Assembly (NCBI RefSeq): GCF_000158175.1
Contig: NZ_DS999411.1
Span: 1,788,929-1,852,928, forward strand
Length of the DNA stretch: 64,000 nt
From: Luminiphilus syltensis NOR5-1B
GTDB lineage: Bacteria > Pseudomonadota > Gammaproteobacteria > Pseudomonadales > Halieaceae
Direction of reading: 5' to 3'
Of the stretch, positions 7,766 through 37,649 are shown piece after piece; within the stretch, counting starts at the first letter, position 1; the number at the start of each line of letters is the position of its first letter. A model generated the notes under the pieces. It was given only the letters and a program-made list of their open reading frames with translations, was not told the origin of the DNA and ran no database searches. The position numbers were made by a program, and so were the translations under genes.

Positions 7766-9091
7766 ATGGCCAACGGTATGCCATCAATGAACAATGCGGG
7801 AATGGGCGAGTTATTCGCCCGTTTACGCTTTGTATTTGTTGCGCTGATCGTCTATCGAATCGGTACGCACATCCCTGTGCCGGGTATTGACCCGGAGCAG
7901 TTGTCGGCGCTTTTCGACCAGAATCAGGGGACTATTCTCGGACTGGCAAACGTGTTTTCCGGCGGTGCACTCGAGCGCATGAGTATTCTTGCGCTGGGTA
8001 TTCTTCCCTATATTTCCGCCTCGATCATCATGCAATTGATGACCGCTGTAACCCCGTCTCTGGAGCAGCTCAAAAAAGAGGGCGAGTCAGGTCGTAGAAA
8101 GATAAGCCAGATGACCCGCTATTTAACGGTGCTGTTGGCCCTGGTGCAGGGCACGGGTATGACCGTTGGGCTTGCGAATCAAGGCCTCACTTTCGACACG
8201 TCGATTACCTTTTATGTCATCGCCATCACGTCGCTGGTCACCGGAGCCGTGTTCATGATGTGGCTGGGTGAGCAAATTACCGAAAAGGGCATTGGTAACG
8301 GTATCTCGCTGCTGATTTTTGCCGGGATTGTCGCGGGATTGCCCGCCGCGATCGGGCAGTCCATGGAGCAGGCTCGACAGGGCGAACTGAATATTCTTGT
8401 GTTGCTGGCCATTGTCGCCCTGGCAATCGCGGTTATTTATCTGGTTGTCTTCATCGAGCGCGGACAACGGCGTCTCACAGTCAATTATGCCAAGCGTCAG
8501 CAGGGCAATAAGCAGTACCAGGCGCAGTCATCGCACCTGCCGCTGAAGGTCAACATGGCAGGTGTAATTCCCGCTATTTTTGCCAGCTCAATACTGCTTT
8601 TCCCCGCGTCGGTGGCGCAGTGGTTTGGCAGCGCCGACAATGCGGATTGGCTGCAGGACCTGGCGGTGGCTATTGGGCCTGGGCAGCCGTTGAATATTAT
8701 CCTGTTCACTGGATTTATCATCTTTTTCTGCTTCTTTTACACCGCGCTGATGTTTAACCCACAGGAAGTGGCTGACAATCTCAAGCGTTCGGGTGCCTTC
8801 GTGCCGGGTATTCGCCCCGGTAAGCAGACGGCCAATTATATCGATGGCGTGTTAACCCGGCTCACGGTCTTCGGTTCAGCGTACATTGCGCTGGTATGCC
8901 TGTTGCCGCAGTTTTTGGTCGTCATGTTCAACGTTCCTTTTTACCTCGGCGGTACGTCAATGCTGATCGTTGTGGTTGTTGTGATGGACTTTATGGCCCA
9001 GGTGCAGAGCCACCTGATGTCTCATCAGTATGAAGGTGTAATGAAAAAAGCAAACCTGGCCAGCACCGGTCCCGCCGGCCGGCTACGGTAG
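7766..9091 (+). CDS. secY: Preprotein translocase subunit SecY
   Basis: 441 residues with the ten hydrophobic helices of SecY, the channel of the Sec translocon in the inner membrane, partner of SecE, SecG and SecA. Visible motifs are [14 protein letters not shown] at the N terminus, the plug region with [21 protein letters not shown], and the C-terminal cytoplasmic segment. It sits at its usual place between rplO and rpmJ. Confidence 0.98.
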
Positions 9092-9109
9092 GTTTCAGGA
9101 GTAAGTAAA

Positions 9110-9226
9110 ATGAAGGTTAGAGCTTCAGTTAAAAAGGTATGTCGTAACTGCAAGATCGTTCGTCGTAACGGTGTGGTTAGAGTGATCTGTTCCAGCGATC
9201 CGCGACATAAGCAGCGCCAGGGATAA
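9110..9226 (+). CDS. rpmJ: 50S ribosomal protein L36, zinc-binding type
   Basis: A 38-codon gene starting ATG at 9110 with CAGGAGTAAG just upstream. The product begins [15 protein letters not shown] and ends HKQRQG. Zinc ligands Cys11, Cys14, Cys27 and His33 are all present, so this is the zinc-containing (C+) form of L36. It lies 18 bases after secY and closes the spc part. Confidence 0.97.
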
Positions 9227-9231
9227 TTTCA

Positions 9232-9260
9232 TTGAAATTGTTTCGGCAAATCAGTAATAT
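9232..9260 (+). promoter_or_regulatory. Sigma70 promoter of the alpha operon (rpsM-rplQ)
   Basis: TTGAAA (9232-9237), a 17-base spacer and TAATAT (9255-9260) make a near-consensus sigma70 promoter about 70 bases before the rpsM start. It falls in the only sizeable gap within the ribosomal cluster, which is where the E. coli alpha operon promoter also lies. Confidence 0.75.
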
Positions 9261-9265
9261 GCGCG

Positions 9266-9331
9266 CCCCTCGATTTGAGTGCGTGGCGTCTGCTCGTGTG
9301 AGCAGCACAAAGAACGTTTGGAGATAAATCA
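9266..9331 (+). promoter_or_regulatory. rpsM leader, possible S4-binding autoregulatory region
   Basis: This 5' leader lies between the promoter and the rpsM start. In E. coli the equivalent RNA folds into a pseudoknot bound by S4, which represses the operon. A short match (GATTTGAGT here, CATTTGAGT in E. coli) and the self-complementary CTGCTCGTGTGAGCAG are visible. The pseudoknot itself was not demonstrated. Confidence 0.35.
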
Positions 9332-9688
9332 ATGGCGCGTATCGCCGGTGTCAACATTCCCGATCATAAACACGCAGTAGTCTCGCTGACGTACATCTAC
9401 GGTGTAGGCCGCACCCAGGCTAAGAAGCTGTGTGCTGTTACCGGCGTCGATGAGGCTACCAAAGTGGCTGACCTCAACGAGGGGCAGCTCGACCAGCTGC
9501 GTAGCCTCGTTTCAGAGATGACCATAGAAGGTGATCTTCGACGAGAAGTGTCAATGAATATCAAGCGGCTTATGGATCTCGGCTGTAACCGTGGTTTACG
9601 TCACCGCAGAGGTCTTCCCTTGCGTGGTCAGCGAACCAAAACCAATGCTCGAACCCGAAAAGGACCGCGCAAGCCGATCCGACGGTAA
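9332..9688 (+). CDS. rpsM: 30S ribosomal protein S13
   Basis: 118 residues, E. coli length. S13 forms bridges to the 50S subunit and contacts the P-site tRNA through its basic tail. [40 protein letters not shown] and the KKPIRR-type end are conserved. Ribosome-binding site TTTGGAG precedes the ATG. Confidence 0.98.
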
Positions 9689-9750
9689 GAGATTTTTTTC
9701 AGTGTAGCTACATCGCTTATTTGTAGCGTGGATATTGAAGTAGGAAAAAA

Positions 9751-10140
9751 ATGGCAAAGCAGGCCAAGACAACAAAGCGGAAGATCACCAAGCAGGTGGT
9801 CGATGGCGTAGCGCATGTGCACGCCTCTTTTAACAATACGATCGTCACCATTACCGATCGTCAGGGAAACACACTGAGCTGGGCGACTGCCGGTGGCTCA
9901 GGTTTTCGCGGCTCCAGAAAGTCGACGCCTTTCGCAGCACAGGTTGCCGCAGAGCGCGCCGGTGAAGCTGCCAAGGAATACGGCCTCAAGAATCTGGATG
10001 TCCAGGTCAAGGGCCCGGGACCGGGTAGAGAGTCAGCCGTGCGCGCACTGAACGCCTGTGGTTACCGCATCAGTAATATCACCGACGTGACGCCCATTCC
10101 GCACAATGGATGTCGCCCACCGAAGAAGCGTCGCGTTTAA
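9751..10140 (+). CDS. rpsK: 30S ribosomal protein S11
   Basis: 129 residues. S11 is part of the 30S platform and the mRNA exit channel. [20 protein letters not shown] and the C-terminal [16 protein letters not shown] are diagnostic. The 62-base gap after rpsM contains a small inverted repeat (GCTAC...GTAGC) of unknown significance. Confidence 0.98.
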
Positions 10141-10164
10141 CGCAAGCGCTGAGGATTTAATAGA

Positions 10165-10785
10165 ATGGCTCGATATATTGGACCTAAGTGCAAGCTCTCC
10201 CGTCGTGAAGGTACAGACCTTCAGCTGAAAAGCGGGGTTCGTGCGCTCGAAGCAAAGTGTAAAGCAGAGACCGCACCCGGACAGCATGGCGCTCGCCGAG
10301 GACGCCTTTCCGATTACGGAGTGCAGCTTCGGGAGAAGCAAAAGGTACGTCGCATCTATGGGGTTCTCGAGAAGCAGTTCCGTAACTATTACAAAGAAGC
10401 CGCCCGCCTCAAGGGTGCTACCGGTGAGAATCTGCTGCAGTTGCTCGAGTGCCGTCTGGATAATGTGGTTTACCGGATGGGCTTTGGTTCCACCCGTGCC
10501 GAAGCCCGGCAGTTGGTGGCCCACAAGGGTATTTTGATCAACAACGCTGTGGTCAATATCCCCTCGTATCAGGTTAAGCCAGGTGATGTGGTATCCATTC
10601 GTGAAAAGGCCAAGAAGCAATTGCGTGTGCAGGCAGCTCTGAGTCTTGCCGAGCAACGCGGGGAACCCGTCTGGATCGAGGTCAACAACGAGAAGCTCGA
10701 GGGCACTTTTAAGGCAAAGCCCGAGCGAGCGGATCTGTCCAGCGAAATCAACGAAAACCTGATCGTGGAGTTGTACTCGAAGTAA
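10165..10785 (+). CDS. rpsD: 30S ribosomal protein S4
   Basis: 206 residues, exactly the E. coli length. S4 nucleates 16S assembly and acts with S5 in decoding accuracy. The [19 protein letters not shown] start, the [13 protein letters not shown] segment and the S4 RNA-binding domain ([10 protein letters not shown]) are present. In E. coli it is the autorepressor of the alpha operon. Confidence 0.98.
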
Positions 10786-19237: not shown

Positions 19238-20119
19238 GTGAAGGTGCTTCTGCTGGGTGCCGATACGCCGCTGGGCTATTCGCTCAACGCTTTCTTCAAC
19301 CCATTGAAGCGGCACGAGCTGGTCCAGGTCCCCCTTGCCGCCACGGCCTGGAAGCGAGAGCGCCAGCTTAAGAAGCTGATCAAGCGCGAGCAGTGTGACA
19401 GTATCATCGATACTCGCCTCATTTCTCTGATTGAGAGTCCCGATAAGTTTGGCGCCGCAGAATTAGAGCGTACTGATTGGTTGTCGGGTATTGCCCGCGC
19501 CACCGACAGCCACTTATTGTTTCTGTCCAGCGCGCGCGTGTATTCAGGGCAATTACAGCGGCCTTACAAAGAAACCGACGAGCCCGACGCCATCGACGTC
19601 AGCGGACGTCTTCTGTGCGAAGCAGAAGCGATATTGAGTGATTCTCAGGCGCGGGTCTTGACGGTGCGCCTCGGGGCCATCTTTTCGGGCCGGCGCTCCA
19701 CGCGATTTACCCAGCTGCTCGACAGCATTCGCGAGCGGAAGCCTGTGCTCAGCAGTGACCAGATGCGCGGCAATCCCGTGCATACCGCTGAGGTGGCGCG
19801 TGTTGTGGCTGGAATACTGGACCAGGTGAGCGTGGGTGCCGCCGATACGGGTCTGTATCATTATTGCAGCTTGGGAGATACAGGCTACTATGCCTTTTCG
19901 GAGGCCGTTATCGCCTGCGCATCGCAGTTTGATGAGTTCTCCACGGCGCGGGAAATGCTGAGAGAGATTCCCGAGGATGAAGTGACACCGTTCAATCGCT
20001 CGCTGGACTGTAATCGCATCCGATTCCAGTTCGGAATCCAGCAATTACCCTGGCGCGACTTTGTGGAGCGTGCGGTGCGCCGTTATATCGACCTTTTACG
20101 TGCGGGAGAACAGAAATGA
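19238..20119 (+). CDS. NAD(P)-dependent sugar-nucleotide reductase-like protein (RmlD/SDR family)
   Basis: 293 residues, GTG start. The N terminus MKVLLLGADTPLGYSL is a Rossmann dinucleotide-binding loop. LLFLSSARVYSG and a following acidic segment resemble the active-site region of RmlD-type extended short-chain reductases, but the typical YXXXK catalytic pair is not evident (GRLLCEAEA occupies that place). It may therefore be a non-catalytic or divergent member. Its stop overlaps the moaB start (ATGA), so it is translationally coupled to molybdopterin genes. Its real substrate is unknown. Confidence 0.65.
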   Translation: MKVLLLGADTPLGYSLNAFFNPLKRHELVQVPLAATAWKRERQLKKLIKREQCDSIIDTRLISLIESPDKFGAAELERTDWLSGIARATDSHLLFLSSARVYSGQLQRPYKETDEPDAIDVSGRLLCEAEAILSDSQARVLTVRLGAIFSGRRSTRFTQLLDSIRERKPVLSSDQMRGNPVHTAEVARVVAGILDQVSVGAADTGLYHYCSLGDTGYYAFSEAVIACASQFDEFSTAREMLREIPEDEVTPFNRSLDCNRIRFQFGIQQLPWRDFVERAVRRYIDLLRAGEQK

Positions 20120-23784: not shown

Positions 23785-25197
23785 ATGACGCTCACAGTAA
23801 CACCGGTCTTGCTTTGCGGTGGGGTGGGTAGCCGATTGTGGCCGATGTCTCGAGAGGGGCGCCCCAAGCAGTTTCTCCCCTTGGGCGGTGACGGCTCAAT
23901 GCTACAGCAGACCTGCCAGCGGCTCGACGCCGTATCGGCAACCGATCCATTGATCGTTTGTAACGATGAGCACCGTTTCCTGGTGGCCGAACAGCTGCGG
24001 GAGATCAATGCCGAGGCCGCGGCGATCATCCTCGAACCTGTGGGACGAAATACGGCGCCGGCGATCGCGCTCGCCGCCCTGCACGCGATAAAGGAGAACC
24101 CCGAGGCCTTGCTGCTGGTGCTTCCGGCGGACCACTTCATAGCTGATGTGGATGCATTCGCCGCCGCGGTGACAAAGGCAGCCGTGGTGGCGGCCGAAGG
24201 CGCATTGGTGACTTTTGGTGTGGTCCCGGATCGACCCGAAACCGGCTACGGCTACATTCGCAGCGGTGAGTTGCTGGCAGACGATATCTACGCGGTTGAC
24301 CAATTTGTTGAAAAGCCGACGGCTGAAATCGCCGAGCAATACCTCGCTGCCGGTATTTATCGGTGGAACAGCGGGATGTTTCTATTTCGAGCCGATGGTT
24401 TTCTCCGGGCATTATCCCAGAGTGCGCCGGAAATCGAATCTGCCTGCGAAGCGGCGATGAACAGGGCGGCAATTGATCTCGATTTTATCAGGCCTGATAA
24501 GGCAATTTTTGAAGCCTGCCCGTCGGACAGCATTGACTATGCGGTAATGGAGCACACCGGTTCAGGCGCTGTAGTGAGTCTCGACTGCGGTTGGAGTGAC
24601 ATCGGCGCCTGGGATGCGTTGTGGGCGATAGGCCATGCCGATGATGACGGTAATGTGCTTTCGGGCGATGTATTACTCGACGATGTGCGCGGTAGTTACG
24701 TCCGTAGCGACAGTCGTCTGGTCGCCGCTACGGGTGTCGATAATCTGGTGATTGTTGAGACTGCAGATGCAGTCATGGTCGCGCATAGAGACCATGCCCA
24801 GGGTGTAAAACGACTGGTCTCCCGCCTCAAAAGCGATGCCCGACCGGAAGCTTCCGTGCATCAGCGGGTTTACCGCCCGTGGGGGAGTTACGAGTCGTTA
24901 ATCGTAGCTGACCGTTTTCAGGTGAAACGTATCGTGGTTAATCCGGGAGGCAAATTGTCGCTGCAAAAGCATTACCATCGTGCGGAGCACTGGGTGGTAG
25001 TGCACGGTACCGCCGAGGTTACTCGCGGTGACGAAGTGATTATGCTGCACGAGGACGAATCAACGTACCTGCCCATGGGAATGAAGCATCGGTTGGTCAA
25101 CCCCGGCCGCATTCCCTTGGAACTCATTGAGGTGCAGTCAGGCTCTTACTTGGGCGAAGACGATATCGTTCGCTACGACGATATCTACGGTCGATAA
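23785..25197 (+). CDS. manC: Mannose-1-phosphate guanylyltransferase / mannose-6-phosphate isomerase
   Basis: 470 residues, the length of bifunctional AlgA/ManC enzymes. The N-terminal nucleotidyltransferase domain has LLCGGVGSRLWPMSREGRPKQF-type motif (residues about 8-29) and FVEKP. The C-terminal cupin isomerase domain (about 350-470) carries the metal-binding LQKHYHRAEHW. Together they give mannose-1-phosphate and GDP-mannose. It heads a manC-galU-manB operon 6 kb upstream of a polysaccharide cassette, so GDP-mannose probably feeds it. ATG with AGGAT upstream. Confidence 0.95.
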   Translation: MTLTVTPVLLCGGVGSRLWPMSREGRPKQFLPLGGDGSMLQQTCQRLDAVSATDPLIVCNDEHRFLVAEQLREINAEAAAIILEPVGRNTAPAIALAALHAIKENPEALLLVLPADHFIADVDAFAAAVTKAAVVAAEGALVTFGVVPDRPETGYGYIRSGELLADDIYAVDQFVEKPTAEIAEQYLAAGIYRWNSGMFLFRADGFLRALSQSAPEIESACEAAMNRAAIDLDFIRPDKAIFEACPSDSIDYAVMEHTGSGAVVSLDCGWSDIGAWDALWAIGHADDDGNVLSGDVLLDDVRGSYVRSDSRLVAATGVDNLVIVETADAVMVAHRDHAQGVKRLVSRLKSDARPEASVHQRVYRPWGSYESLIVADRFQVKRIVVNPGGKLSLQKHYHRAEHWVVVHGTAEVTRGDEVIMLHEDESTYLPMGMKHRLVNPGRIPLELIEVQSGSYLGEDDIVRYDDIYGR

Positions 25198-25217
25198 CGA
25201 ATCGGAGCGAGATCAAT

Positions 25218-26048
25218 ATGATTAAGAAATGTCTTTTTCCAGTGGCGGGTTACGGCACTCGATTCCTTCCTGCCACCAAGAGCATGCCCAAAGAGATGCT
25301 GCCGGTCGTCAACAAGCCGCTGGTCCAGTATGGCGTTGAGGAGGCTATCGAAGCGGGCATGCTCAACTGCGCACTCGTCACCGGACGCGGCAAACGGGCT
25401 ATCGCCGACCACTTTGATACCAATTACGAGTTAGAACATCAGATATCCGGGAGCAGCAAGGAGACGCTGCTCGAGGGTATTCGCGACGTTATCGATCGCG
25501 GTGTGTTTACGATGGTGCGCCAGCGTGAAATGAAAGGATTGGGTCACGCGATTCTGACGGGCGAGCCCTTGATTGGCAGCGAGGCGTTCGGGGTGTTGCT
25601 TTCTGACGATCTTTGTATCAATGAGGGTCCCGGTGTGCTGGCGCAAATGACCGAGCTATACCGGCAGTTCCGATGCTCAATCGTGGCGGTGCAGGAAGTG
25701 CCCAAAGATCAGGTCTATAAATACGGTGTGATTGCGGGCGAGGCGATCAAGGATGATGTCTATCGGGTTGATAAAATGGTGGAGAAGCCATCCGTTGAGG
25801 AAGCCCCGAGCAATCTGGCAATTATTGGCCGGTATATTTTGACTCCGGATATCTTTGACATCATCAGAGAAACGCCTCCGGGTGCCAATGGCGAGGTTCA
25901 GATTACCGACGCACTGCAGACGCAGGCGCGGACGGGCGCGGTGATGGCTTACAAATTTAAGGGCCGGCGTTTCGATTGTGGAAGCGTTCCGGGCTTTGTT
26001 GAGGCGACCAACTACGTTTACGAAAATCTATATCCCAGCGACCTCTGA
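25218..26048 (+). CDS. galU: UTP-glucose-1-phosphate uridylyltransferase
   Basis: 276 residues of the GalU family, which makes UDP-glucose. The nucleotide-binding motif [19 protein letters not shown] at residues about 9-27 and the KMVEKP segment are clear. It lies 20 bases after manC and its stop overlaps the start of manB/algC (TGATG), so the three are one unit for activated sugar supply. Confidence 0.97.
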
Positions 26049-27400
26049 TGCAGGAGACTCTCGCCTGTTTCAAGGCCTATGACGTCCGTGGTCAGGTTCC
26101 CGAGCAGCTCAATGAAGATATAGTGCGTCGTATTGGTCGCGCTTACGCCGAGGCTATCCGTCCCGGTAACGTTGTTGTCGGTCATGACATTCGGCTGACC
26201 AGTGAATCGCTGAAGCAGGCGCTAATCGATGGGCTGCGGGAGCAGGGTGTTGATGTCACTGATATCGGCCTGTGCGGGACCGAAGAAATTTATTTTGCCA
26301 CGGCGCATCTGGGGGTTGGCGGCGGCATAGTGGTTACCGCCAGCCACAATCCCAAGGACTACAATGGCCTTAAATTTGTGCGTGAGGCCTCCAAGCCGAT
26401 ATCCGGTGATTCTGGACTTCGTGAGATTCAGCACCTTGCGGAGCGCAATGTTTTCGAGGCCACTGCGAAAAGAGGCGGTTATCAAACCGCAGATTTGCTG
26501 GGTGATTACGTCGCCCATTTGCTGTCTTATGTTGATATCACGTCACTCAAACCCCTGCGTATTGTCTGTAATGCGGGGAATGGCGGTGCGGGTCGGGTTA
26601 TTGACGCGCTCGAGCCTCACCTCCCGTTTACGTTTATCACGCAAAATCATGAGGCTGATGGCCATTTCCCCAACGGTGTTCCCAACCCATTGCTTGTTGA
26701 AAACCGCAGTCCTACAACGGCCTTGCTTCAGTCCTCCAACGCGGATTTTGGTATCGCCTGGGATGGTGACTTTGATCGCTGCTTCTTCTTCGACGCCGCG
26801 GGCAATTTCATCGAGGGTTATTACATTGTAGGTCTGCTGGCCGGGGCCTTTATTGAGAAAAATGGGCCGCAGCGCGTTGTTCACGATCCGCGTTTGACCT
26901 GGAATACCATAGCTGTAGTCGAGGGGGCGGGTGGTGAGGCCGTGCAAAGCAAGACGGGCCACGCGTTCATCAAGGAAAAGATGCGTGAGGCTGACGCCAT
27001 TTATGGTGGCGAAATGAGTGCACACCATTACTTCAGGGACTTTGCCTATTGCGACAGCGGAATGATTCCCTGGCTGCTCGTGGCTGAGTTGATGGCGCAG
27101 CGCAATCAATCACTGGCTGAGATGATTGCCGCAAGAGCGGCCATGTTTCCCTGCAGTGGCGAGATCAATCGCAAGGTGGAAGATCCCCGGGCATTGATGC
27201 GAGCGGTCGAGGCCTATTACGCCCAGGGCTGCACACACATCGCTCATGTCGATGGGTTGAGTATCGAGTTCGACGACTGGCGCTTTAACCTCCGCTCATC
27301 CAATACCGAGCCGGTAGTACGGCTGAATGTTGAAACCCGGGGAGACGTCGAAAAAATGAAGCAGAAAACCGAAGAATTGCTACGTTTTATTGATGGTTAA
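26048..27400 (+). CDS. manB: Phosphomannomutase (ManB/CpsG type)
   Basis: 450 residues of the alpha-D-phosphohexomutase superfamily, interconverting mannose-6- and mannose-1-phosphate; the related AlgC also acts on glucose phosphates. All four key loops are visible: the phosphoserine loop [15 protein letters not shown], the metal-binding DGDFDRC, the sugar-binding [10 protein letters not shown], and the phosphate-binding RSSNTEP. The GTEE segment is typical of the CpsG branch. It overlaps galU at its start and the convergent pgi at its end. Confidence 0.94.
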
Positions 27401-29006: not shown

Positions 29007-29972
29007 CTAGCTGGCTCTCTCCAAAGAGAGATGCAGTAAGTCAGAGAGTGCTGCTTTGGCGCGATTTTCCTGAAGCACATCCAGGCCGCTCATCGCCAGA
29101 TCGTGGCGTTCACGAGCACGTTCACGTGTGAAGTCAAGACTTCCCGAGCGCCTAACCGCCGCAATAACCTCGCTCAGTGATGCCGTGGATTTTTCCCTGA
29201 GGGACTGGGCAACGAGGTCTCTATCGGGTTTGGATCCGGTCTGCATAGTATGCAGCAGGGGTAACGTGGTTTTGCCCTCGTTGAGATCATCACCAATATT
29301 CTTGCCGGTAACGGTGGGATCGCCCTCGTAGTCGAGCACATCATCAATCATCTGGAACGCGATCCCGAGGTTGAGGCCGTATTGGCTGAGCGCCTGCTGA
29401 GTCTTGATGTCGCAGTTAGCGAGCATGGCGGCTCCCTGGCAGGCCGAGGCAAAGAGAATCGCGGTCTTGCGGGTGATCACATCAATGTACTGGCTTTCAT
29501 CGATATCCGGGTTTCCCGCCCGGGCCAACTGCAGGACCTCACCTTCAGCTATGGTGTTGGTCGTGTCTGCCATATGGCGCAGCAAGTCCATATTGTCCAG
29601 CTGGACCATCAACTGGAAGGCCCGTGTGTAGAGAAAGTCACCAACCAGTACGCTTGGCGCATTACCGAACGCCTCATTGGCGGTGGGGCGTCCTCGGCGA
29701 AGTGTGGATACATCGACAACATCATCGTGCAACAGCGTTGCCGTGTGAATAAACTCGACAACGGCTGAGAACCGAATATGGGACTCGGTGCAGCCTCCCA
29801 GGGCTTCACCCGCGAGCAGCACCAGAAGCGGCCGCAGGCGCTTGCCTCCCGCATCGACAATGTACTGCCCGACGTTTTCGACCATATCAACGTCGGAGTG
29901 CAGCTGCTCAATAATGAGTTGATCTACCTGTTCCACTTCTGATTGGACGCAGGCGCGAATGGCTTCAATCAC
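29007..29972 (-). CDS. ispB: Octaprenyl (polyprenyl) diphosphate synthase
   Basis: 321 residues, GTG start with a GGAG ribosome-binding site. This trans-prenyltransferase makes the ubiquinone side chain. The two aspartate-rich motifs are clear: LLHDDVVDVSTLRRGRPTAN and FQMIDDVLDYEGD. In many Gammaproteobacteria ispB is divergent from rplU; here a polysaccharide cassette of about 7.5 kb lies between them. pgi follows two bases downstream. Confidence 0.95.
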   Translation of the reverse strand: MIEAIRACVQSEVEQVDQLIIEQLHSDVDMVENVGQYIVDAGGKRLRPLLVLLAGEALGGCTESHIRFSAVVEFIHTATLLHDDVVDVSTLRRGRPTANEAFGNAPSVLVGDFLYTRAFQLMVQLDNMDLLRHMADTTNTIAEGEVLQLARAGNPDIDESQYIDVITRKTAILFASACQGAAMLANCDIKTQQALSQYGLNLGIAFQMIDDVLDYEGDPTVTGKNIGDDLNEGKTTLPLLHTMQTGSKPDRDLVAQSLREKSTASLSEVIAAVRRSGSLDFTRERARERHDLAMSGLDVLQENRAKAALSDLLHLSLERAS

Positions 29973-30135: not shown

Positions 30136-31035
30136 GTGCCACCCTCCGCTTCCTCGGTGCATCTCGCCGCGGTTATTGTTACTTTTTCCCCCGAAATCGA
30201 GAGGCTGGTCAGCCTGTTGAGTGCGTTGGGGGATGAATATCCTGTCTTTATCTTTGACAACGGCTCTGACAATGCGGCTGATGTTACGTCGGTAGCAGCA
30301 GAGTTTTCGGCAACCCTAATCGCCTCTGAGGCTAACGTCGGTCTGGCGGCTGCCCTGAATCGATTGGAGGCGGGACTTCCGCCTGCGATCAAGGGCTTTG
30401 TTGCTTTTGATCAGGATAGTGAGCCTGGAGATGGCTACATCCGACGACTGGAAGCCCTTTGGTCTGAAGCGCGCAGGCAGTCTCCAGCGACCGCAGCGCT
30501 GGGAGGCTGGGTCATTGACCTTCCCGATCATGTGCATTTGGGATTCTTCCGCTTGCAGGGACTCCGTGCGGTCGAGCTGCCCATGAAGAATGGCGTGGTG
30601 CAGCCTGATTGGCTGATTATTTCGGGAACCTTGTACGATCGAGAGGCATTCCGTAAAACCGGCATCTTTGACGACCAGCTTTTTGTGGACAATGTCGATC
30701 TCGAATGGAGCTACCGCGCGCAAAGCAAAGGTTATCGTTTGTTGGGGACCGACCGCGTGACCATGCTGCATCAGGTTGGCAATCGCAGTATTCACTTGCC
30801 CGGAATGGGCTGGCACGTGAAGATTCACAGCCCGGATCGATCAATGATAATGACCCGAAGCCGGGTGCTGAGTTATCGCAAGAACACGATACCGGCGATC
30901 TGGAAGTGGCACGACGGGATTCGCTTTATACTGAAAACCGTCATTATGATCGTCTTTGCCGATCAGCGTATTCCGCGAGTCAAAGCAATTTTTCGTGGTC
31001 TAAAGCAGGGCATCACGATGCCGATAGAGCGGTGA
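30136..31035 (+). CDS. Glycosyltransferase family 2, rhamnosyltransferase-like
   Basis: 299 residues, GTG start preceded by an excellent ribosome-binding site (AAAGGAGGT at 30120-30128). GT-A fold motifs: VIVTFSPEIERL at the N terminus, IFDNGSDN, FDQDSEPGDG as the metal-binding DXD region, and VDLEWSYRAQSKGY as the acceptor-side acidic motif. This pattern resembles WbbL/RfbN-type transferases, but the sugar transferred is not certain. First gene of the polysaccharide cassette, 15 bases before the next transferase. Confidence 0.85.
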   Translation: MPPSASSVHLAAVIVTFSPEIERLVSLLSALGDEYPVFIFDNGSDNAADVTSVAAEFSATLIASEANVGLAAALNRLEAGLPPAIKGFVAFDQDSEPGDGYIRRLEALWSEARRQSPATAALGGWVIDLPDHVHLGFFRLQGLRAVELPMKNGVVQPDWLIISGTLYDREAFRKTGIFDDQLFVDNVDLEWSYRAQSKGYRLLGTDRVTMLHQVGNRSIHLPGMGWHVKIHSPDRSMIMTRSRVLSYRKNTIPAIWKWHDGIRFILKTVIMIVFADQRIPRVKAIFRGLKQGITMPIER

Positions 31036-31050
31036 GCGAGTCAGACAACG

Positions 31051-33213
31051 ATGGGAAAAATGCGCAAACGACGCTACCTTAAATCCACGCTGGAGAACGC
31101 GATCTACCGCGCCCGACAAGGACTCAGGAAAACAATGGCTATTACCGATCGTATTAAAGGGAGGCTCGGCGGTAGTGTTCCGATCACACCGAAAGAAACA
31201 CACACCATCGACAAGAAAGGTGAGCTTTACGACTTCCTCATTTCTGAGGAACGATTGGATTTTGCCAATGAACAGTCGCCGGTGGTTAGCATTCTGCTGG
31301 TGTTTTTTAATCGCGCAGAGTTGTCTCTGGCGTGTTTAAAAAGCCTCAAGCAACACATCGGGATACCTTTTCAGTTGGTTATCGTCGATAACGCGTCCGA
31401 GGATGAGACGGCGATACTGCTCAATCGAATCGACGGTGCTGAGATTATCCGTAACGACGACAACCGCGGTTTTCTTCTTGCCTGTAACCAGGCGGCAGAA
31501 CGGGCACTCGGACATTATATATTGCTGCTCAACAATGACGCCGAAGTTCACGCGGGCACGGTTGAGTCGGCGGTCGCCGCTTTCGACACCGGTGCTGGTA
31601 TCGGCGTTGTCGGCGGCAAGATCACCTTGCTCGACGATACCCTGCAGGAGGCGGGCAGTATTATGTGGCAGGACGGATCCTGCCTCGGCTTTGCCCGCGG
31701 ATTTAACCCCGAGGATCCCGCGGTCAATTTCGTCCGCGACGTCGACTACTGCTCAGGTGCTTTCATGATGACGCCGAGGCAGTTATTCAGAGATTTAGGC
31801 GGGCTCGATGAGGCCTACGCCCCCGCCTACTATGAAGAAACGGACTACTGTGCGCGGGTGCATCGGGCGGGTCTTCGTATTGTCTATGAGCCTCGTGCCG
31901 CAATCACCCATTTTGAGTTTGCCAGTGCAGGAAAGAGCGATTTTGCCATTCGTCAGATGACGAAGAACGCTTCGCTGTTTCGCGAAAAAAACCGGGGACT
32001 TTTGGATACCCGTCTGCCACCCGAATCGAGCAATATCTGGCGCGCGCGACACTACGATCATTTGAAGCCGCATCTGTTGTACGTCGATGACCGGGTACCC
32101 CATCGTTCATTTGGCGGTGGCTTTCCACGCTCCAATGACGTGCTCAGGGCGCTGGCTGAGGCGGGATTTAATATCACACTCGTGCCGTACAATTTTCCCG
32201 ATGAGGACTCGTTGGCGACGGTGTACGCGGATATTCCGCGCACCGTTGAAGTACTCCTGGGGGTTGGCAGGACCAACCTCAATGACATATTGCGCCAGCG
32301 CGCAGGGCTTTACGGTGTCGTCTGGGTGAGCCGACCGCACAACATGTCGCATTTTATGACCTTTGTTGATCGAGCCGCCATTGCCGGTGCCCAAATCGTT
32401 TACGACGCGGAAGCTATTTTTGCGTTACGGGATATCGAGCAGGCGCGGGTGGAAGGCCGGCCCATGAGCGAGGAGCAGTCGAGGGAGCAGATTGCCAAGG
32501 AGGTGCGTTTGATTGAATCTGCTGATCATATTGTCGCGGTCAACGAGCACGAAAAGGAACACTTCATCGACTATGGCAAGGTTCAGGGCTCGACCGTATC
32601 AGTACTGGGGCACGCGCTTGATGTTACGCCTACAGCTGCTGGTTTTGCAGCGCGTTCGGGCCTGCTATTCGTCGGTAATATGGACTACGAGGACTCCCCC
32701 AACGTCGATTCGATACGGTGGTTCCTCAATCAGGTATGGCCGCTTATTCGGCGTGAGTTGCCGGAAACCACGCTGCACCTGGTCGGTGCCAACAATGCGC
32801 CATCGATAAAGCGCTGCAGTATTGACGGTGTCCAGGTGCACGGTCGTGTGGATGATGTCAGCGCCTTGTATAACCAGTGCCGTGTATTTATCGCGCCTAC
32901 GCGCTATGCCGCGGGTGTTCCGTTCAAGGTTCATGAAGCGGCGGCGATGGGCTTGCCGGTGGTCGCCAGTGAGTTAATCGCTGACCAGACCGGCTGGCGT
33001 GAAAATGGCGGATTGCTGGCTGCCTCGAGCAGCGACGGTGAGGCATTTGCAAAGCAGTGTATTTCGTTGCACAGGGATGAAGCCCAGTGGCGCAATTGCC
33101 GTGAACAGGCACTGAAATTAATTGCCGACGAGTGCGACCCCGCGGTTTATCCAAGGGTGATCAACGACGTTCTCAAGGCGCTTGGGATTACCAACGCGGC
33201 ATCTGCCGCTTAG
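31051..33213 (+). CDS. Two-domain glycosyltransferase (GT2 fused to GT4)
   Basis: 720 residues. After a basic N terminus (1-75) comes a GT2 domain, about 78-320: VSILLVFFNRAELSL, IVDNASEDET, LLLNNDAEVH (the acidic metal site, 158-167) and EETDYCARVHRAG. A second GT-B/GT4 domain follows, about 340-710: LLYVDDRVPHRSFGGGFPRS, LLFVGNMDYEDSPNVDS and the EX7E-type nucleotide-sugar site GVPFKVHEAAAMGLPVV. Such bifunctional enzymes can add two sugars in turn. It overlaps the convergent sulfotransferase-PhyH gene by four bases. Confidence 0.88.
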   Translation: MGKMRKRRYLKSTLENAIYRARQGLRKTMAITDRIKGRLGGSVPITPKETHTIDKKGELYDFLISEERLDFANEQSPVVSILLVFFNRAELSLACLKSLKQHIGIPFQLVIVDNASEDETAILLNRIDGAEIIRNDDNRGFLLACNQAAERALGHYILLLNNDAEVHAGTVESAVAAFDTGAGIGVVGGKITLLDDTLQEAGSIMWQDGSCLGFARGFNPEDPAVNFVRDVDYCSGAFMMTPRQLFRDLGGLDEAYAPAYYEETDYCARVHRAGLRIVYEPRAAITHFEFASAGKSDFAIRQMTKNASLFREKNRGLLDTRLPPESSNIWRARHYDHLKPHLLYVDDRVPHRSFGGGFPRSNDVLRALAEAGFNITLVPYNFPDEDSLATVYADIPRTVEVLLGVGRTNLNDILRQRAGLYGVVWVSRPHNMSHFMTFVDRAAIAGAQIVYDAEAIFALRDIEQARVEGRPMSEEQSREQIAKEVRLIESADHIVAVNEHEKEHFIDYGKVQGSTVSVLGHALDVTPTAAGFAARSGLLFVGNMDYEDSPNVDSIRWFLNQVWPLIRRELPETTLHLVGANNAPSIKRCSIDGVQVHGRVDDVSALYNQCRVFIAPTRYAAGVPFKVHEAAAMGLPVVASELIADQTGWRENGGLLAASSSDGEAFAKQCISLHRDEAQWRNCREQALKLIADECDPAVYPRVINDVLKALGITNAASAA

Positions 33214-34943
33214 AGAATGGTTTTGGTGTACTGACCACAGACATGGCCGCCGTGGTTTGTCGATTGTTTACCCGCCTTTTCTTTCAAGTAGGGCGGAGTG
33301 CACCGCTGGGGGCAATAGTGGGTGACCAGACTTCGTCTCGTGGACTGGGGATTCTCGATTTTAGACCCGCCATGATACAGCCCTGATGACCAGATCAGTG
33401 CATCGCCCTTTCTTGGCAGAAACCGCTGGCTGAGCAACCCATTTTCTTTGGCCAGTTTGTGGACGATTCGGGTGTAGTGGGTTTTGGGGAGTAAGCGCTG
33501 GTACCGATCGCTGCGTTTTGCAAATAAACTCCTTACCAGGCGCTCGTAGCCCGTGGGCTTGGCATCCTGCCAGACGCTGCCGTTATCGAATACGTGATCG
33601 GGTATCTTGTGACTGCCCGGATAGTATTCGAGTTCGCCGGTGCCGGGGTGAACGTCCTCGAGGGCAATCCAGGATGCTACGAAATTTCTCGGTTCGTCGA
33701 CCTTTACAAAGGCAATATCCGAGTGCATTCCCTGTTCGGAGCCCTTCTCAAACGACAATGACTGAAACGCCAGAGGCTCGTCCTGCAATATCAGGGTCAG
33801 GTAGCGTCGAATCTGCTCGTGAAAGATGGCCGCGCGCACCGACTCCGACACCATATGGATATCGAGCAGTTTGGCCTCGTGTCTGGTCGCGTAGTCGCTT
33901 TGTGAGGGGAGATGTCGCTTCTGCGATCCCTCCCAGAAAGAGGCATAAGTCTCTCCCGTCGGGTTGGACCAGGCGGTGAGAATCTCGTTGAGAATGCTTT
34001 CGGTAAGGTCGTCGGGCAGGGCATCTGGAATCACCAGATAACCCTGATCGCAAAAGAAGCGCAGATTCTCCGCCTCATCCCAGCTTATGCTGCCGGCCTC
34101 CAGCCCGTGTTTGATCATTGCTTTCGCATCGGGGTGGTCGGTCCACAAGGCGCTGTTAAGGGCAGTGGTTGTCGTTGGGGATCTAAGGCCATTGCCTGCA
34201 AAGGGTTCGAAACTCGGTTTTTCACCTGGCGTCGTCATGGGCGGCGGTGCCAATGTTGGTGCGCTTATCGCCATTTTCTCAGTGTTGTCATTCGCCGTTA
34301 CCGATGTTTCTGGATCTGATTCAGACGGTACCAGCGAATCGGCGTATCGTTTGGCGAAAGGCGTCTTTTGCCAGTAGGGCGTCAGTTCCTCGAGCGCGCC
34401 CTGTGGCAGATTCTGATTCGAAAATTCAGGCCGCTTGGTGAGTTTGATACCGGTAAACGTTTCGATGGCGCCGTAATAGTCGGGAAGTTGCTCATACGGC
34501 ACTTCGAGGTAGCGACTGCCCAGTTGTTTCCGCAGTTGCCGACAACCCTGGTCGTAGCCGAACCACATTCGAATCGCCCGGATCATACGCTCTTCTATGG
34601 CGTCGCCGAGTTCGGGAAATTGCCGTGGCGGAAAGGCACTCTCTTTGGGGAAGGCTATCGAATAGACGTTGTTCTGAGGTTCTCGCGTAATGTGGATGAA
34701 ATAGGAGTTTGGGAATTTTCTGACGATGGGATCGGCGACCCGGTAATTCTCACACCACTTGAAACAAATGGTCTTGGCGGGTGGGAAGTGCCACTTTCCC
34801 ACTTTCCCCCGCTGCAGGTGCGGGATATCGCCGGGCTCGTCGTAGGTCAGATCGCAGTTGTCACCAATAAGGCGGGTCAGGAAGGTTGTGCCTGATCGTG
34901 GACTGCCTACAATCCAAATGAATTTACAGGGGTCAGCCGTCAT
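33210..34943 (-). CDS. Sulfotransferase fused to a PhyH-type 2-oxoglutarate dioxygenase
   Basis: 577 residues from the ATG at 34943; GTG at 34952 is an alternative. N-terminal domain (about 1-200): PAPS-binding loop GSPRSGTTF (13-21) and a 3'-phosphate-type FIHITREPQNN, as in Sulfotransfer families. A Pro/Thr-rich linker (about 205-255) leads to a PhyH-like domain (about 285-550) with iron ligands H407 and D409 (HSD), H524 in GLYHGGS and an arginine 12-13 residues later for 2-oxoglutarate. Predicted to sulfate and hydroxylate a cassette product; the substrate is unknown. It overlaps the upstream sulfotransferase. Confidence 0.85.
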   Translation of the reverse strand: MTADPCKFIWIVGSPRSGTTFLTRLIGDNCDLTYDEPGDIPHLQRGKVGKWHFPPAKTICFKWCENYRVADPIVRKFPNSYFIHITREPQNNVYSIAFPKESAFPPRQFPELGDAIEERMIRAIRMWFGYDQGCRQLRKQLGSRYLEVPYEQLPDYYGAIETFTGIKLTKRPEFSNQNLPQGALEELTPYWQKTPFAKRYADSLVPSESDPETSVTANDNTEKMAISAPTLAPPPMTTPGEKPSFEPFAGNGLRSPTTTTALNSALWTDHPDAKAMIKHGLEAGSISWDEAENLRFFCDQGYLVIPDALPDDLTESILNEILTAWSNPTGETYASFWEGSQKRHLPSQSDYATRHEAKLLDIHMVSESVRAAIFHEQIRRYLTLILQDEPLAFQSLSFEKGSEQGMHSDIAFVKVDEPRNFVASWIALEDVHPGTGELEYYPGSHKIPDHVFDNGSVWQDAKPTGYERLVRSLFAKRSDRYQRLLPKTHYTRIVHKLAKENGLLSQRFLPRKGDALIWSSGLYHGGSKIENPQSTRRSLVTHYCPQRCTPPYLKEKAGKQSTNHGGHVCGQYTKTIL

Positions 34944-36174
34944 TGGATTCACCGCGAATACGCTGGATTATCCGTTTAAAAAAGCGCACCGGATAGGAGA
35001 TTTTCCAGCTAGTGGATTGATACACCGCTTTGAGCGTCAAATAATTTTGCCGGGCCTCATTTTCCCTTTCTCTCGCGATAGCGAGTGCCTGTCGGGTCTC
35101 CATCCGACTGAGCGACCAATTTTCATGATAGAGCTGGGCTTGCCGAAGCGCAGTTTTCAGCTCCCTCTCAACGTGTTGTTTTGATTCAAGGTCGGCAGAT
35201 AGACGGTTACTGACCTCGGCAAGTGAGTTGACCTGTTTTTCGAGTGAGCCCAGGTACTTATTCTTTTCCTGAAGCTGGCGCTCCAGGTCAGCGACCCAGA
35301 GACGATCATTCTCCTCGAGCATTTCGAGTGAATGGTACTCGTAGTCGAGATGTACGATTAGCGGGCACAGTGAACGCCATTCCGCGGAGTAGCTTTCAAT
35401 CAAATCGAGGGTGAGCGGCTCGCTCAGCAGCGCCTGATAGAGACGTTGCGCTAGATCTGCAAGGGCATTAACGTCGCTGCCGTACTCGGCCTCGCTTGCT
35501 GTCACCAATCCCTGGTCGTAAAAATCGAGGAAGGCCTGCTGGTCAAGGTCGTCCAGGCCGAATCCCACAGTAATGTCCCGCAATGTTTGCTCGGGGTGTT
35601 GTAGCGATCGCGTAAAGTCGACCACGAGGATCTTTGAGGTGTCGAGTACAGAACGAAGCCCCTCGAGCAGGCTGAGGGTGTATTTGAGCCACAGCGCGAC
35701 CGATTTTTCGCTGCTGAATCGGTTCCGCTGATATAACGATGAGGCAACCTCATGGGGTGAACGAATGCAAAGTAGCCAGTAGGGTTCCACATCCAGCGCG
35801 CTGAAAATTTCGCTCCAGAAAGGGACCAGGATCGACACCCGCGGGTCCTTGATCCCCGACAGCGGTCGGTCGGCGATCAATTGCTGCAACAGCGCGACCG
35901 CGTCTGCCCGGTAGCGGGCGGTGGCGGGGATTGCCGTCTCAATATCCAGTGGCGCGGCGGTGTCCCAGCGTTGCATGAGGCTTGCGAGGAGCCGATCGTT
36001 GGCCTCGACGAGCTGTCGATCTTCGAAAAAACCCTTTTTATTGTCTTTGGCGGCGCCGATCAGGTCGTCACCAAAATTTACTCCGGCCGCATTCAGCGCC
36101 CCGGCGAGTGCACTGGTACCGCTGCGGTGCATTCCCGCGATCACGATCAGCCCCTGCTTATCGTCGGATGACAC
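34933..36174 (-). CDS. Sulfotransferase-like protein with C-terminal coiled coil
   Basis: 413 residues from the GTG at 36174, which sits right after the stop of the ABC ATPase gene (TGAGGTG). A TTG 48 bases further upstream would add an unlikely N terminus. P-loop GMHRSGTSAL at about 14-23, GIKDPRVSILVPFW, and CIRSPHEVASSL fit PAPS-dependent sulfotransferases. Residues about 283-386 are a heptad-rich coiled coil, and the end contains STSWKISYPVRFF, a tail usually seen on bacterial glycosyltransferases. Overlaps the next gene by 11 bases. Confidence 0.82.
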   Translation of the reverse strand: MSSDDKQGLIVIAGMHRSGTSALAGALNAAGVNFGDDLIGAAKDNKKGFFEDRQLVEANDRLLASLMQRWDTAAPLDIETAIPATARYRADAVALLQQLIADRPLSGIKDPRVSILVPFWSEIFSALDVEPYWLLCIRSPHEVASSLYQRNRFSSEKSVALWLKYTLSLLEGLRSVLDTSKILVVDFTRSLQHPEQTLRDITVGFGLDDLDQQAFLDFYDQGLVTASEAEYGSDVNALADLAQRLYQALLSEPLTLDLIESYSAEWRSLCPLIVHLDYEYHSLEMLEENDRLWVADLERQLQEKNKYLGSLEKQVNSLAEVSNRLSADLESKQHVERELKTALRQAQLYHENWSLSRMETRQALAIARERENEARQNYLTLKAVYQSTSWKISYPVRFFKRIIQRIRGESNDG

Positions 36175-36175
36175 C

Positions 36176-36871
36176 TCAGCTGGCCTTGTTTTCAATCTGG
36201 CGCCGGTACTCAGGCAGCACAATTTCCGGTGTGTCGATCATTTTTACGGTCCCATTTTCCAGCCACATGACCCGATGACACAGTTTGCTGATGGTATTCA
36301 GATTGTGCGATACCAGAACGACCGTTGCATTCGACCGAATCAGTTGTGCAATGGCCTGCTCAGACTTCTTTCTGAATACGCCGTCGCCCACCCCAAGGAC
36401 TTCATCGATCAGAATCACGTCGGGCAGTGAGGCGATGGCGATACCCAGTGCCAGTCTCGCACGTTGCCCCGAGGAAAACGTACCCACCCGCTCAAATTCC
36501 ATATCCCCGAGCTCAGCAAAATCAAGAATCTGGGGCGTGGAGGCCTTGACCTGCGCCGTGCTCATTCCCAGAAGCATGCCATTCAGCGCGATATTGTCCC
36601 GGCAACTCAGGTCGGTTGAAAAGGGTAACTGCAGGGTTAACAGCGCTGCGCGCAGATTCGGCGCGGTATGAACGCTGCCCTCGTCCGGCAGAATGATTCG
36701 ACCGAGAACACGCAGCAGTGAGCTTTTACCCGCGCCGTTGCGACCGATAATACCTATGGTTTCACCTTTCAGAATAGTCAACGAGAGCTGACGGATAATC
36801 CAATTATCGGCGCCGGATTGGCGCGCGTAGCGAACGCCAAGGTCTTCAATAGTGATGACAGCGTCATTCAT
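36176..36871 (-). CDS. wzt: Polysaccharide ABC exporter, ATP-binding subunit
   Basis: 231 residues of the KpsT/Wzt family. Walker A GRNGAGKSS (about 42-50), signature FSSGQRARLALGIA (a LSGGQ variant), Walker B VILIDE and switch SHNLN are all present. Its short length shows that the C-terminal carbohydrate-binding domain of some Wzt proteins is missing, so export is probably not tied to recognition of a terminal sugar cap. It lies 16 bases after the permease gene. Confidence 0.9.
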   Translation of the reverse strand: MNDAVITIEDLGVRYARQSGADNWIIRQLSLTILKGETIGIIGRNGAGKSSLLRVLGRIILPDEGSVHTAPNLRAALLTLQLPFSTDLSCRDNIALNGMLLGMSTAQVKASTPQILDFAELGDMEFERVGTFSSGQRARLALGIAIASLPDVILIDEVLGVGDGVFRKKSEQAIAQLIRSNATVVLVSHNLNTISKLCHRVMWLENGTVKMIDTPEIVLPEYRRQIENKAS

Positions 36872-36887: not shown

Positions 36888-37649
36888 TCAGACGATCAGT
36901 TTGGGCAGTCGACGATCGTAGTGTCGATGCAGGGCGATGGACAGGTACAGGAGCCCAAGGCTCAATCCAAGTACGTAAAATACGGATCCCCATGCGGGTA
37001 ACTCTCCCTCGAGGAGAAGCGTGCGGTAGGCACCAATCAGTACCGCCATGGGATTGAGATTGAAGTAGGTTCGCGCGGGCTCCGCAAAGTCGCCAATGTC
37101 GAAAAATATGCCTGATATGAGCATGCCGAGTAACAAGCCGTTGTCGATGATGGGCTTCAGATCACCAAGCAGGGGCACCAGCACTGCCGCAAGTGTTGCG
37201 CAGGCCGTGATGAGGATGAGCTGAATGAGCATGATCAGGGGAAGCACGTACCAGTACTGAAGGTGCAGTGAGTGCTGCCAAAGCAGGACTGAAAAAAGTA
37301 AAATCAGGGTGACAAAATACTTCACGGTATTTCCTGCAACAACAAACAGCGGGAACAGAATTTTGGGTAGGTAAATCTGTTGGATCAGATTCTTTGCCTG
37401 CAATATCGAGGTCGTGGAATTCGCAATACTGGAAGCAAACCATTTCCAGTGCACCAGGCCGATCAGAAGGAACGACACAAAACCTTCATCACCGCGTCTG
37501 AAGCCAAGCGCGAAAACACAGTAAAACGCGACCAGATAGAGTGCGGGCTCCAGGATCCACCAGGCCAATCCCAGGAAATAGCCCGACGCCTCGGCTTTCA
37601 GGTCGGTGGCGACACGCACCCGAATGAGATTGATATAGTGTTTAAGCAA
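36888..37649 (-). CDS. wzm: Polysaccharide ABC exporter, permease subunit
   Basis: 253 residues of the ABC-2 family (KpsM/Wzm) with six predicted helices. GLAWWILEPALYLVAFYCVF and NPMAVLIGAYRTLLLEGELP are typical. The start is TTG at 37649; no ATG or GTG lies nearby in frame, and no clear ribosome-binding site is visible. With wzt it forms the inner-membrane exporter of the cassette. First gene of the minus-strand half of the cassette. Confidence 0.9.
   Translation of the reverse strand: MLKHYINLIRVRVATDLKAEASGYFLGLAWWILEPALYLVAFYCVFALGFRRGDEGFVSFLLIGLVHWKWFASSIANSTTSILQAKNLIQQIYLPKILFPLFVVAGNTVKYFVTLILLFSVLLWQHSLHLQYWYVLPLIMLIQLILITACATLAAVLVPLLGDLKPIIDNGLLLGMLISGIFFDIGDFAEPARTYFNLNPMAVLIGAYRTLLLEGELPAWGSVFYVLGLSLGLLYLSIALHRHYDRRLPKLIV

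What the first reader, a model, noticed from the sequence alone, without database searches (positions are those of the whole stretch)
33210..34943. Sulfotransferase fused to a PhyH-type Fe(II)/2-oxoglutarate dioxygenase
One protein contains a PAPS-type P-loop (GSPRSGTTF) and, after a Pro/Thr-rich linker, a complete PhyH-like iron site (HSD, distal His, Arg). I do not know a characterised enzyme with this pairing. In a glycan cassette it suggests coupled hydroxylation and sulfation of a sugar or lipid carrier, a possibly undescribed glycan modification.
Basis: partly seen in the sequence, partly recalled or inferred. Interest (0 to 1): 0.78.

Follow-up and report, generated by a model that had tools for sequence, protein, structure and literature searches.

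The report
Sulfotransferase-dioxygenase fusion in glycan-export cassette
One bacterial protein joins an enzyme module that adds sulfate to one that oxidises its substrate with iron and oxygen, inside a small set of genes for making and exporting a surface sugar chain, which hints at an oxidised and sulfated glycan that has not been looked for.

Summary
Profiles, intact signature residues and fold searches of two AlphaFold models support both halves. It ends a wzm-wzt-sulfotransferase gene row that meets two glycosyltransferase genes tail to tail. The roughly 8-kb block sits between ispB-like and rplU genes, which lie 0.2-0.4 kb apart in 28 of 29 sibling loci (the last is cut by its contig). 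No second fusion was found, within limited searches. In another gammaproteobacterium (G185) the same two enzymes are neighbouring separate genes in an ABC-export glycan cluster (sulfotransferase 40% identical). Three close stand-alone PhyH relatives sit directly beside a sulfotransferase gene of another subfamily. So the pairing recurs and the fusion is probably real and functional. Whether the sulfate goes on the hydroxyl that PhyH makes, and whether the substrate is sugar or lipid, is untested. Observation confirmed, interpretation partly supported: a new domain combination of two known enzyme families, not a new kind of enzyme.

The parts
33210..34943 (-). Sulfotransferase-PhyH fusion gene, 577 aa
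34329..34943 (-). Sulfotransferase domain, residues 1-205
   Evidence: Pfam Sulfotransfer_3; AlphaFold model of residues 1-210, pLDDT 84, whose 50 listed PDB matches (of 1293) are sulfotransferases
34881..34907 (-). PAPS 5'-phosphosulfate loop GSPRSGTTF, residues 13-21 (role recalled)
34836..34838 (-). Glu36, candidate catalytic base (role inferred from recalled sulfotransferases)
   Evidence: invariant (3 rows)
34152..34328 (-). Linker, residues 206-264, low model confidence, GC3 0.475 against 0.64 and 0.67 in the two domains
33213..34151 (-). PhyH-type oxygenase domain, residues 265-577
   Evidence: Pfam PhyH; fold matches SnoN, human PHYH, EctD, SnoK
33717..33725 (-). Iron ligands His407-Ser-Asp409 (role by alignment)
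33372..33374 (-). Distal iron ligand His524
33336..33338 (-). Arg536, 2-oxoglutarate carboxylate anchor (role inferred)
34933..36222 (-). Second sulfotransferase-like protein with probable C-terminal coiled coil, 429 aa from the longest ORF start
   Evidence: Sulfotransfer_3 E=9e-5, under its cut-off, and weak coiled-coil-type matches; 35% over 162 aa to the N-terminus of the 1158-aa G005 protein
36176..36871 (-). Wzt-type ABC ATPase, 231 aa; only the ABC domain found
   Evidence: NCBIfam Wzt/TagH models match below their cut-offs
36888..37649 (-). Wzm-type ABC-2 permease, 253 aa
   Evidence: below cut-offs; 45% to its homologue beside wzt in G005
30136..31035 (+). Rhamnosyltransferase-like GT2, 299 aa
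   Evidence: TIGR01556 E=2.8e-42, under its cut-off; Pfam GT2 only 0.011
31051..33213 (+). GT2 + GT1 double glycosyltransferase, 720 aa
   Evidence: homologue fused to a sulfotransferase-like domain in G005

Best explanation
A real bifunctional enzyme of an ABC-exported surface glycan. Shown: one reading frame with two complete catalytic domains, at the end of a wzm-wzt-sulfotransferase gene row in a lineage-specific glycan cassette. Inferred: on the cytoplasmic face, before export, the PhyH domain uses Fe(II), O2 and 2-oxoglutarate to oxidise a carbon of the growing glycan or its sugar donor, and the sulfotransferase domain moves sulfate from PAPS to the same glycan, most simply to the hydroxyl made next door. 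The flexible linker lets both domains reach one carrier-bound substrate. The Wzm/Wzt pair exports the product. Rough probabilities: both domains active 0.85; both act on the same glycan product 0.55; sulfate placed on the newly made hydroxyl 0.3.
For: Two complete domains. Same pair as separate adjacent genes (PhyH 9054-9848, sulfotransferase 9913-10608, 40% identical) in a cluster of G185 with Poly_export, Wzm, Wzt and GT2 genes. Three further PhyH relatives are directly downstream of a sulfotransferase gene: L054, L058, L112. G005, same genus, has wzm-wzt plus one 1158-aa protein joining a relative of the window's second sulfotransferase to a relative of its GT2-GT1 protein, so the cassette's parts belong together. 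APS kinase present. PDB relatives of the PhyH clade include SnoN, SnoK, EvdO2 and AviO1; that these act on sugars or sugar-bearing antibiotics is recalled.
Against: Only one fusion is known, so conservation of the fused state cannot be tested. The G185 PhyH lies outside the fusion's own PhyH clade, so the pairings arose more than once or were reshuffled. L054, L058 and L112 pair with a different sulfotransferase subfamily, and no glycan cluster was seen round them. 13 of 17 PhyH-relative loci had no sulfotransferase directly adjacent. In the saxitoxin list the two enzyme types serve a small molecule, not a glycan. The sulfotransferase profile's nearest solved relatives by sequence are the CurM and olefin-synthase domains (E=0.0055 and 0.017, both weak), which are recalled to act on acyl chains.
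Confidence: 0.5

Rival explanations
1. The fused protein is a chain-end cap: it oxidises and sulfates only the terminal residue, working like the WbdD kinase/methyltransferase terminators of ABC-exported O antigens.
For: ABC-exporter gene row; the neighbouring sulfotransferase-like protein has a probable C-terminal coiled coil (weak TolA_bind_tri and SMC matches), a layout recalled from chain-length rulers.
Against: The Wzt here is 231 aa with only the ABC domain found; capped systems are recalled to need a C-terminal carbohydrate-binding domain on Wzt.
Confidence: 0.15
2. The pair acts on a lipid or acyl chain (lipid carrier, hydroxy-fatty acid or polyketide-like tail) rather than a sugar: PhyH hydroxylates the chain and the sulfotransferase sulfates it.
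For: PhyH's namesake is an acyl-CoA hydroxylase (recalled); the sulfotransferase profile's best solved relatives are the CurM and olefin-synthase domains (weak); the G185 cluster ends in a modular polyketide synthase; three PhyH-sulfotransferase gene pairs were not seen in glycan clusters.
Against: The window cassette's six genes include glycosyltransferases and an exporter but no acyl or polyketide gene. By fold the sulfotransferase is closest to tyrosylprotein sulfotransferases.
Confidence: 0.25
3. The two domains act on different positions or different sugars of the same glycan, and the fusion only co-localises or co-regulates them. PhyH may epimerise or cyclise rather than hydroxylate.
For: Best fold match is the SnoN epimerase, with the SnoK carbocyclase close behind; long low-confidence linker.
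Against: Nothing tested here separates this from the leading reading.
Confidence: 0.3
4. Artefact: frameshift, misassembly or a broken enzyme.
For: Only one example of the fusion.
Against: One open frame in a single-contig genome, intact catalytic residues in both domains, a linker rather than an abrupt junction, ORF overlapping its upstream neighbour.
Confidence: 0.03

Closest known systems
PhyH (PF05721) Fe(II)/2OG oxygenases: human PHYH 2a1x, SnoN 5ep9, SnoK 5epa, EctD 3emr/4mhr, MysH 9c9n, EvdO2 4xab
   Same: Fold and the HxD...H + Arg site
   Different: No sulfotransferase is named in these entries; 14-18% identity in the fold alignments of those listed (EvdO2 is only)
PAPS sulfotransferases (PF13469/PF00685): tyrosylprotein sulfotransferases, heparan sulfate 3-OST-3, CurM and olefin-synthase domains, Cpz8
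   Same: P-loop, conserved Arg/Ser of the 3'-phosphate site (role recalled) and fold
   Different: Compact, about 205 aa, in a rare subfamily: strong relatives found only in G185 and in jumbo phage LR756511
Saxitoxin pathway genes sxtS (phytanoyl-CoA dioxygenase) and sxtN (sulfotransferase)
   Same: A PhyH-family oxygenase and a sulfotransferase in one pathway (table passages of PMC6722697)
   Different: Separate genes and a small-molecule product; no comparison of sequences was made
Sulfated capsule clusters of marine bacteria (Vibrio sp. KMM 8419, PMC11641403; Cobetia marina KMM 1449, PMC11766843)
   Same: ABC exporter + glycosyltransferases + sulfotransferases (passages seen)
   Different: Their main texts hold no occurrence of 'phytanoyl' or 'dioxygenase'
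G005 wzm-wzt-(sulfotransferase/GT2/GT1) gene row, L180
   Same: Wzm 45%, Wzt 50%, second sulfotransferase 35% and GT2-GT1 33% identical
   Different: No relative of the fusion in the 20 kb (blastp E<=1e-3) or in the genome (E<=1e-3); its ispB-rplU site is empty (L160)

Membership tests
PhyH (PF05721) | Whole-profile match above the curated cut-off | tested here: met
   63.9 bits against 22, profile 1-212 of 213
PhyH (PF05721) | 2-His-1-carboxylate iron site and 2OG-binding Arg | tested here: met
   H407, D409, H524, R536, by alignment; geometry in the model not measured
PhyH (PF05721) | 2OG-dependent oxygenase activity | not testable with these tools
   needs enzyme assay
PAPS sulfotransferase (PF13469) | Match above the curated cut-off | tested here: met
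   40.7 bits against 27 for the whole protein, two stretches
PAPS sulfotransferase (PF13469) | 5'-PSB loop, catalytic acid/base, 3'-PB Arg and Ser | tested here: met
   loop 13-21, E36, R87, S95 conserved in 3 rows; their roles are recalled
PAPS sulfotransferase (PF13469) | Sulfotransferase fold | tested here: met
   All 50 listed PDB matches (of 1293 with E<=10) are sulfotransferases, best E=9e-9, TMq 0.44-0.60
ABC-exported O-antigen/capsule cassette | Wzm + Wzt + glycosyltransferases together | tested here: met
   Wzm is below the curated cut-offs and rests on its homologue in G005
WbdD-type capped O-antigen system | C-terminal carbohydrate-binding domain on Wzt | tested here: not met
   Wzt 231 aa, ABC domain at 27-158 and no such domain among its 11 Pfam matches
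Group 2/3 capsule system | KpsD/KpsE-type export partners beside the ABC genes | tested here: not met
   none among the six cassette proteins searched; a Poly_export gene is present in the G185 cluster. The rest of the genome was not searched

The most novel reading that the evidence does not exclude
A single-protein 'oxygenate then sulfate' enzyme: it creates a hydroxyl at an unactivated carbon of a surface glycan and sulfates that same oxygen, giving bacterial glycans sulfate esters at positions that ordinary sugar chemistry cannot offer.
Probability: 0.27. Interest if true: 0.78.

Novelty: new variant of a known kind. Interest (0 to 1): 0.5.

Why it matters
If the domains work in series this would be a self-contained route to a sulfated position that has no hydroxyl in the parent sugar, a modification that glycan surveys could miss. 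It would give a genetic marker for it (PhyH next to, or fused with, a sulfotransferase) and a small tool enzyme for glycan or lipid editing. Even if the domains act separately, the recurrent PhyH-sulfotransferase pairing points to an unassigned sulfation pathway.

Tried and rejected
Rejected: frameshift/misassembly; broken metal site; two proteins from an internal start (no evident ribosome-binding site before Met224/Met236, judged by eye); foreign base composition as a sign of transfer (cassette genes GC 0.52-0.56 and GC3 0.60-0.67 outside the linker, like the flanks), although the empty sibling sites point to an insertion. No convincing repeat bounds the cassette (one 28-nt direct pair at 75%, both copies inside genes, and four inverted pairs of 74-79%).

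Led nowhere: viral-contig scans with P0001, A1 and the jumbo-phage sulfotransferase found no relative; phylum search with A1 gave no strong new member (15 of 398 genomes at E<=1e-3, own genome included, the best other 7e-7); blastn against phages none; the VIA-align library was not available. The only genome-contig scan used two short peptide patterns and gave 3 loci, one of them a strong relative, so a fusion elsewhere may well have been missed. A fusion with a sulfotransferase of another subfamily would also be missed by the P0001 searches unless its open frame stood out: the longest other frame was 513 (G1212, L106), whose 460-aa ORF has only PhyH in Pfam.

Adjacency control, told in full: of 17 loci with a PhyH relative, 4 had a sulfotransferase directly beside it (L054, L058, L112, L057); a fifth (L115) had an HMM hit about 3.6 kb away that has no Pfam match. 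L057 came in through its sulfotransferase, so the fair count is 3 of 16. Control of other PhyH places: 42 loci given, 1 dropped because it is itself a sulfotransferase hit (L044), and 6 pairs are the same gene, leaving 35 places, of which 1 (L038) has a sulfotransferase. Viral loci: 0 of 80 with the HMM, although L221 shows a P-loop motif ORF. Flanks differed (up to about 1.5 kb in the control, 3 kb in the viral loci, 0 to 18 kb in the targets, many cut by contig ends), the detecting HMM was home-made from own-genome sulfotransferases, and no test of significance was run: suggestive only. L117's neighbour looked like a sulfotransferase by eye but had no Pfam match and was not counted.

Papers: in the listings (1 paper; 1; 20 of 22 listed), three papers hold both a PhyH term and a sulfotransferase term; passages of all three were looked up. 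Two show the two enzymes as separate table entries; in the third only the PhyH terms were looked up. The five papers and the four were seen as listings only. One search gave 0 papers. Searches (0 papers; 0 papers; 10 of 20 listed, listing only) were on neighbouring topics.
Full report
WHAT IS THERE. The ORF at window:33210-34943, minus strand, is 577 aa from ATG 34943. Pfam finds PhyH over almost the full profile (E=3.3e-17, residues 297-537) and Sulfotransfer_3 (E=4.3e-10, two stretches), both above their cut-offs. NCBIfam finds nothing at E up to 1. An AlphaFold model of the whole protein (33-row alignment, mean pLDDT 75.2, pTM 0.55) shows two folded parts joined by a stretch with pLDDT under 50 at residues 207-264. 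Foldseek of that model against the PDB lists SnoN, human PHYH, EctD, SnoK, MysH and other 2OG oxygenases in its top 50. A separate model of residues 1-210 (mean pLDDT 84.1, 4 sequences) matches only sulfotransferases among its 50 listed hits, tyrosylprotein sulfotransferases first, with moderate TM-scores of 0.44-0.60 over the query. The iron ligands H407, D409, H524 and the arginine R536 are invariant in 12 aligned rows and align with human PHYH (a weak match). The sulfotransferase signature (P-loop at 13-21, E36, R87, S95) is conserved in the three members available.

SURROUNDINGS. The gene is last in a closely packed minus-strand row: ABC-2 permease (36888-37649), ABC ATPase (36176-36871), sulfotransferase-like protein with a probable coiled coil (34933-36222), fusion. 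Facing it tail to tail are a rhamnosyltransferase-like GT2 and a GT2+GT1 protein (30136-33213). The block lies between an ispB-like octaprenyl diphosphate synthase gene (29007-29972; best NCBIfam model 361.9 bits, under its cut-off of 412) and rplU (37925; above cut-off), with pgi and obg further out (both above cut-off). In the same genus 41 genomes (own included) were searched with the ispB protein and 30 loci fetched, one of them the window's own. In 28 of the 29 others rplU lies about 0.2-0.4 kb from ispB; the last (L179) reaches only 15 bases beyond the ispB match on that side. So the cassette is most simply an insertion in this lineage. Its base composition matches the flanks. A related exporter row in G005 (same genus, another place) has wzm, wzt and one 1158-aa protein that joins relatives of the window's second sulfotransferase and of its GT2+GT1 protein. 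This ties the two converging gene rows of the window to one pathway. Nucleotide-sugar genes (manC-like, another nucleotidyltransferase, PMM/PGM) lie beyond pgi at 23785-27400, and an RmlD-domain gene at 19238-20119. The genome has an APS kinase and 13 Sulfotransfer_3 matches.

HOW RARE. With P0001 as query the fusion was the only single protein matched over both halves: 58 genomes; 390; 369; 4; 140; 5; the sets overlap, and include the window's own genome. In plasmids and phages no record covered 80% of the query. The sulfotransferase subfamily is itself rare: G185 (40% identity), jumbo phage LR756511 (33%), and weak matches otherwise. The PhyH half has many relatives at 32-42% identity in the same family and order.

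THE PAIRING RECURS. In G185 (L057; the same contig as L093, JAURLY010000234.1, titled Gammaproteobacteria bacterium isolate SFB_Oligo_Co_158) a PhyH gene and the 40%-identical sulfotransferase gene are neighbours, in the reverse order, in a row of Poly_export, Wzm, Wzt, a KpsE-like gene (by position and look only), GT2, PhyH, sulfotransferase, Sulfotransfer_2, GT1 and polyketide synthase genes. L054, L058 and L112 each have a PhyH gene directly downstream of a Sulfotransfer_1/3 gene, and L112 has a sulfatase ORF beyond it. The fair adjacency count is 3 of 16, against 1 of 35 other PhyH places and 0 of 80 viral ones (with the caveats under Tried and rejected): suggestive, not proof. In two trees the fusion's PhyH domain groups with PhyH proteins of two viral contigs, L191 and L193 (support 99/98 and 97/91); those rows have unusual composition and a long stem branch, so the placing is tentative. 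The G185 PhyH falls outside this clade, so PhyH and sulfotransferase were probably brought together more than once. A wider precedent for the pair, as separate genes, is the saxitoxin list with sxtS and sxtN (PMC6722697, table passages only).

MECHANISM. Shown: two complete enzyme domains, one reading frame, a glycan-export setting. Inferred: both act in the cytoplasm on a carrier-linked glycan or its precursor before Wzm/Wzt export; the PhyH domain oxidises a carbon and the sulfotransferase adds sulfate. The simplest coupling is hydroxylation followed by sulfation of the new hydroxyl. Rivals are separate sites on one glycan, a chain-end cap (weakened by the absence of a detected carbohydrate-binding domain on Wzt), or a lipid/acyl substrate (CurM and olefin-synthase domains are the best solved sequence relatives of the sulfotransferase, weakly, and G185 has a polyketide synthase beside the pair).

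NOVELTY. Six searches of the open-access library aimed at the pairing and three on neighbouring topics gave no paper seen to describe a sulfotransferase-PhyH fusion. Passages were seen in five papers; the rest were seen as listings with the starts of abstracts. Subscription papers and preprints were not searched. Both parts belong squarely to known families, so this is a new combination, not a new kind.

Noticed in passing
L057:2793-20000 (G185): Poly_export/ABC export genes beside PhyH, two sulfotransferases and a modular polyketide synthase: a possible sulfated glycolipid cluster.
   Followed up: partly
L180:8667-12143 (G005): 1158-aa protein joining a sulfotransferase-like N-terminus with GT2 and GT1 domains behind wzm-wzt; the N-terminus matches the window's second sulfotransferase by blastp but no Pfam sulfotransferase at E<=0.01.
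   Followed up: partly
L064:9067-13750 (jumbo phage LR756511): Two sulfotransferases, a methyltransferase, an RGP-like protein and an F5/8-type domain protein side by side in a 595-kb phage record.
   Followed up: no
L112:59-3751 (G1204): PhyH and sulfotransferase genes next to a sulfatase ORF; two further short ORFs behind it look like pieces of the same gene (only the first was searched).
   Followed up: no
L065-L071 (own genome): Seven strong Sulfotransfer_3 matches lie in long proteins (526-682 aa) whose starts look like TPR repeats; the TPR reading is by eye and was not searched.
   Followed up: no
L191, L193 (viral contigs): Viral-contig PhyH proteins that group with the fusion's PhyH domain.
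   Followed up: partly
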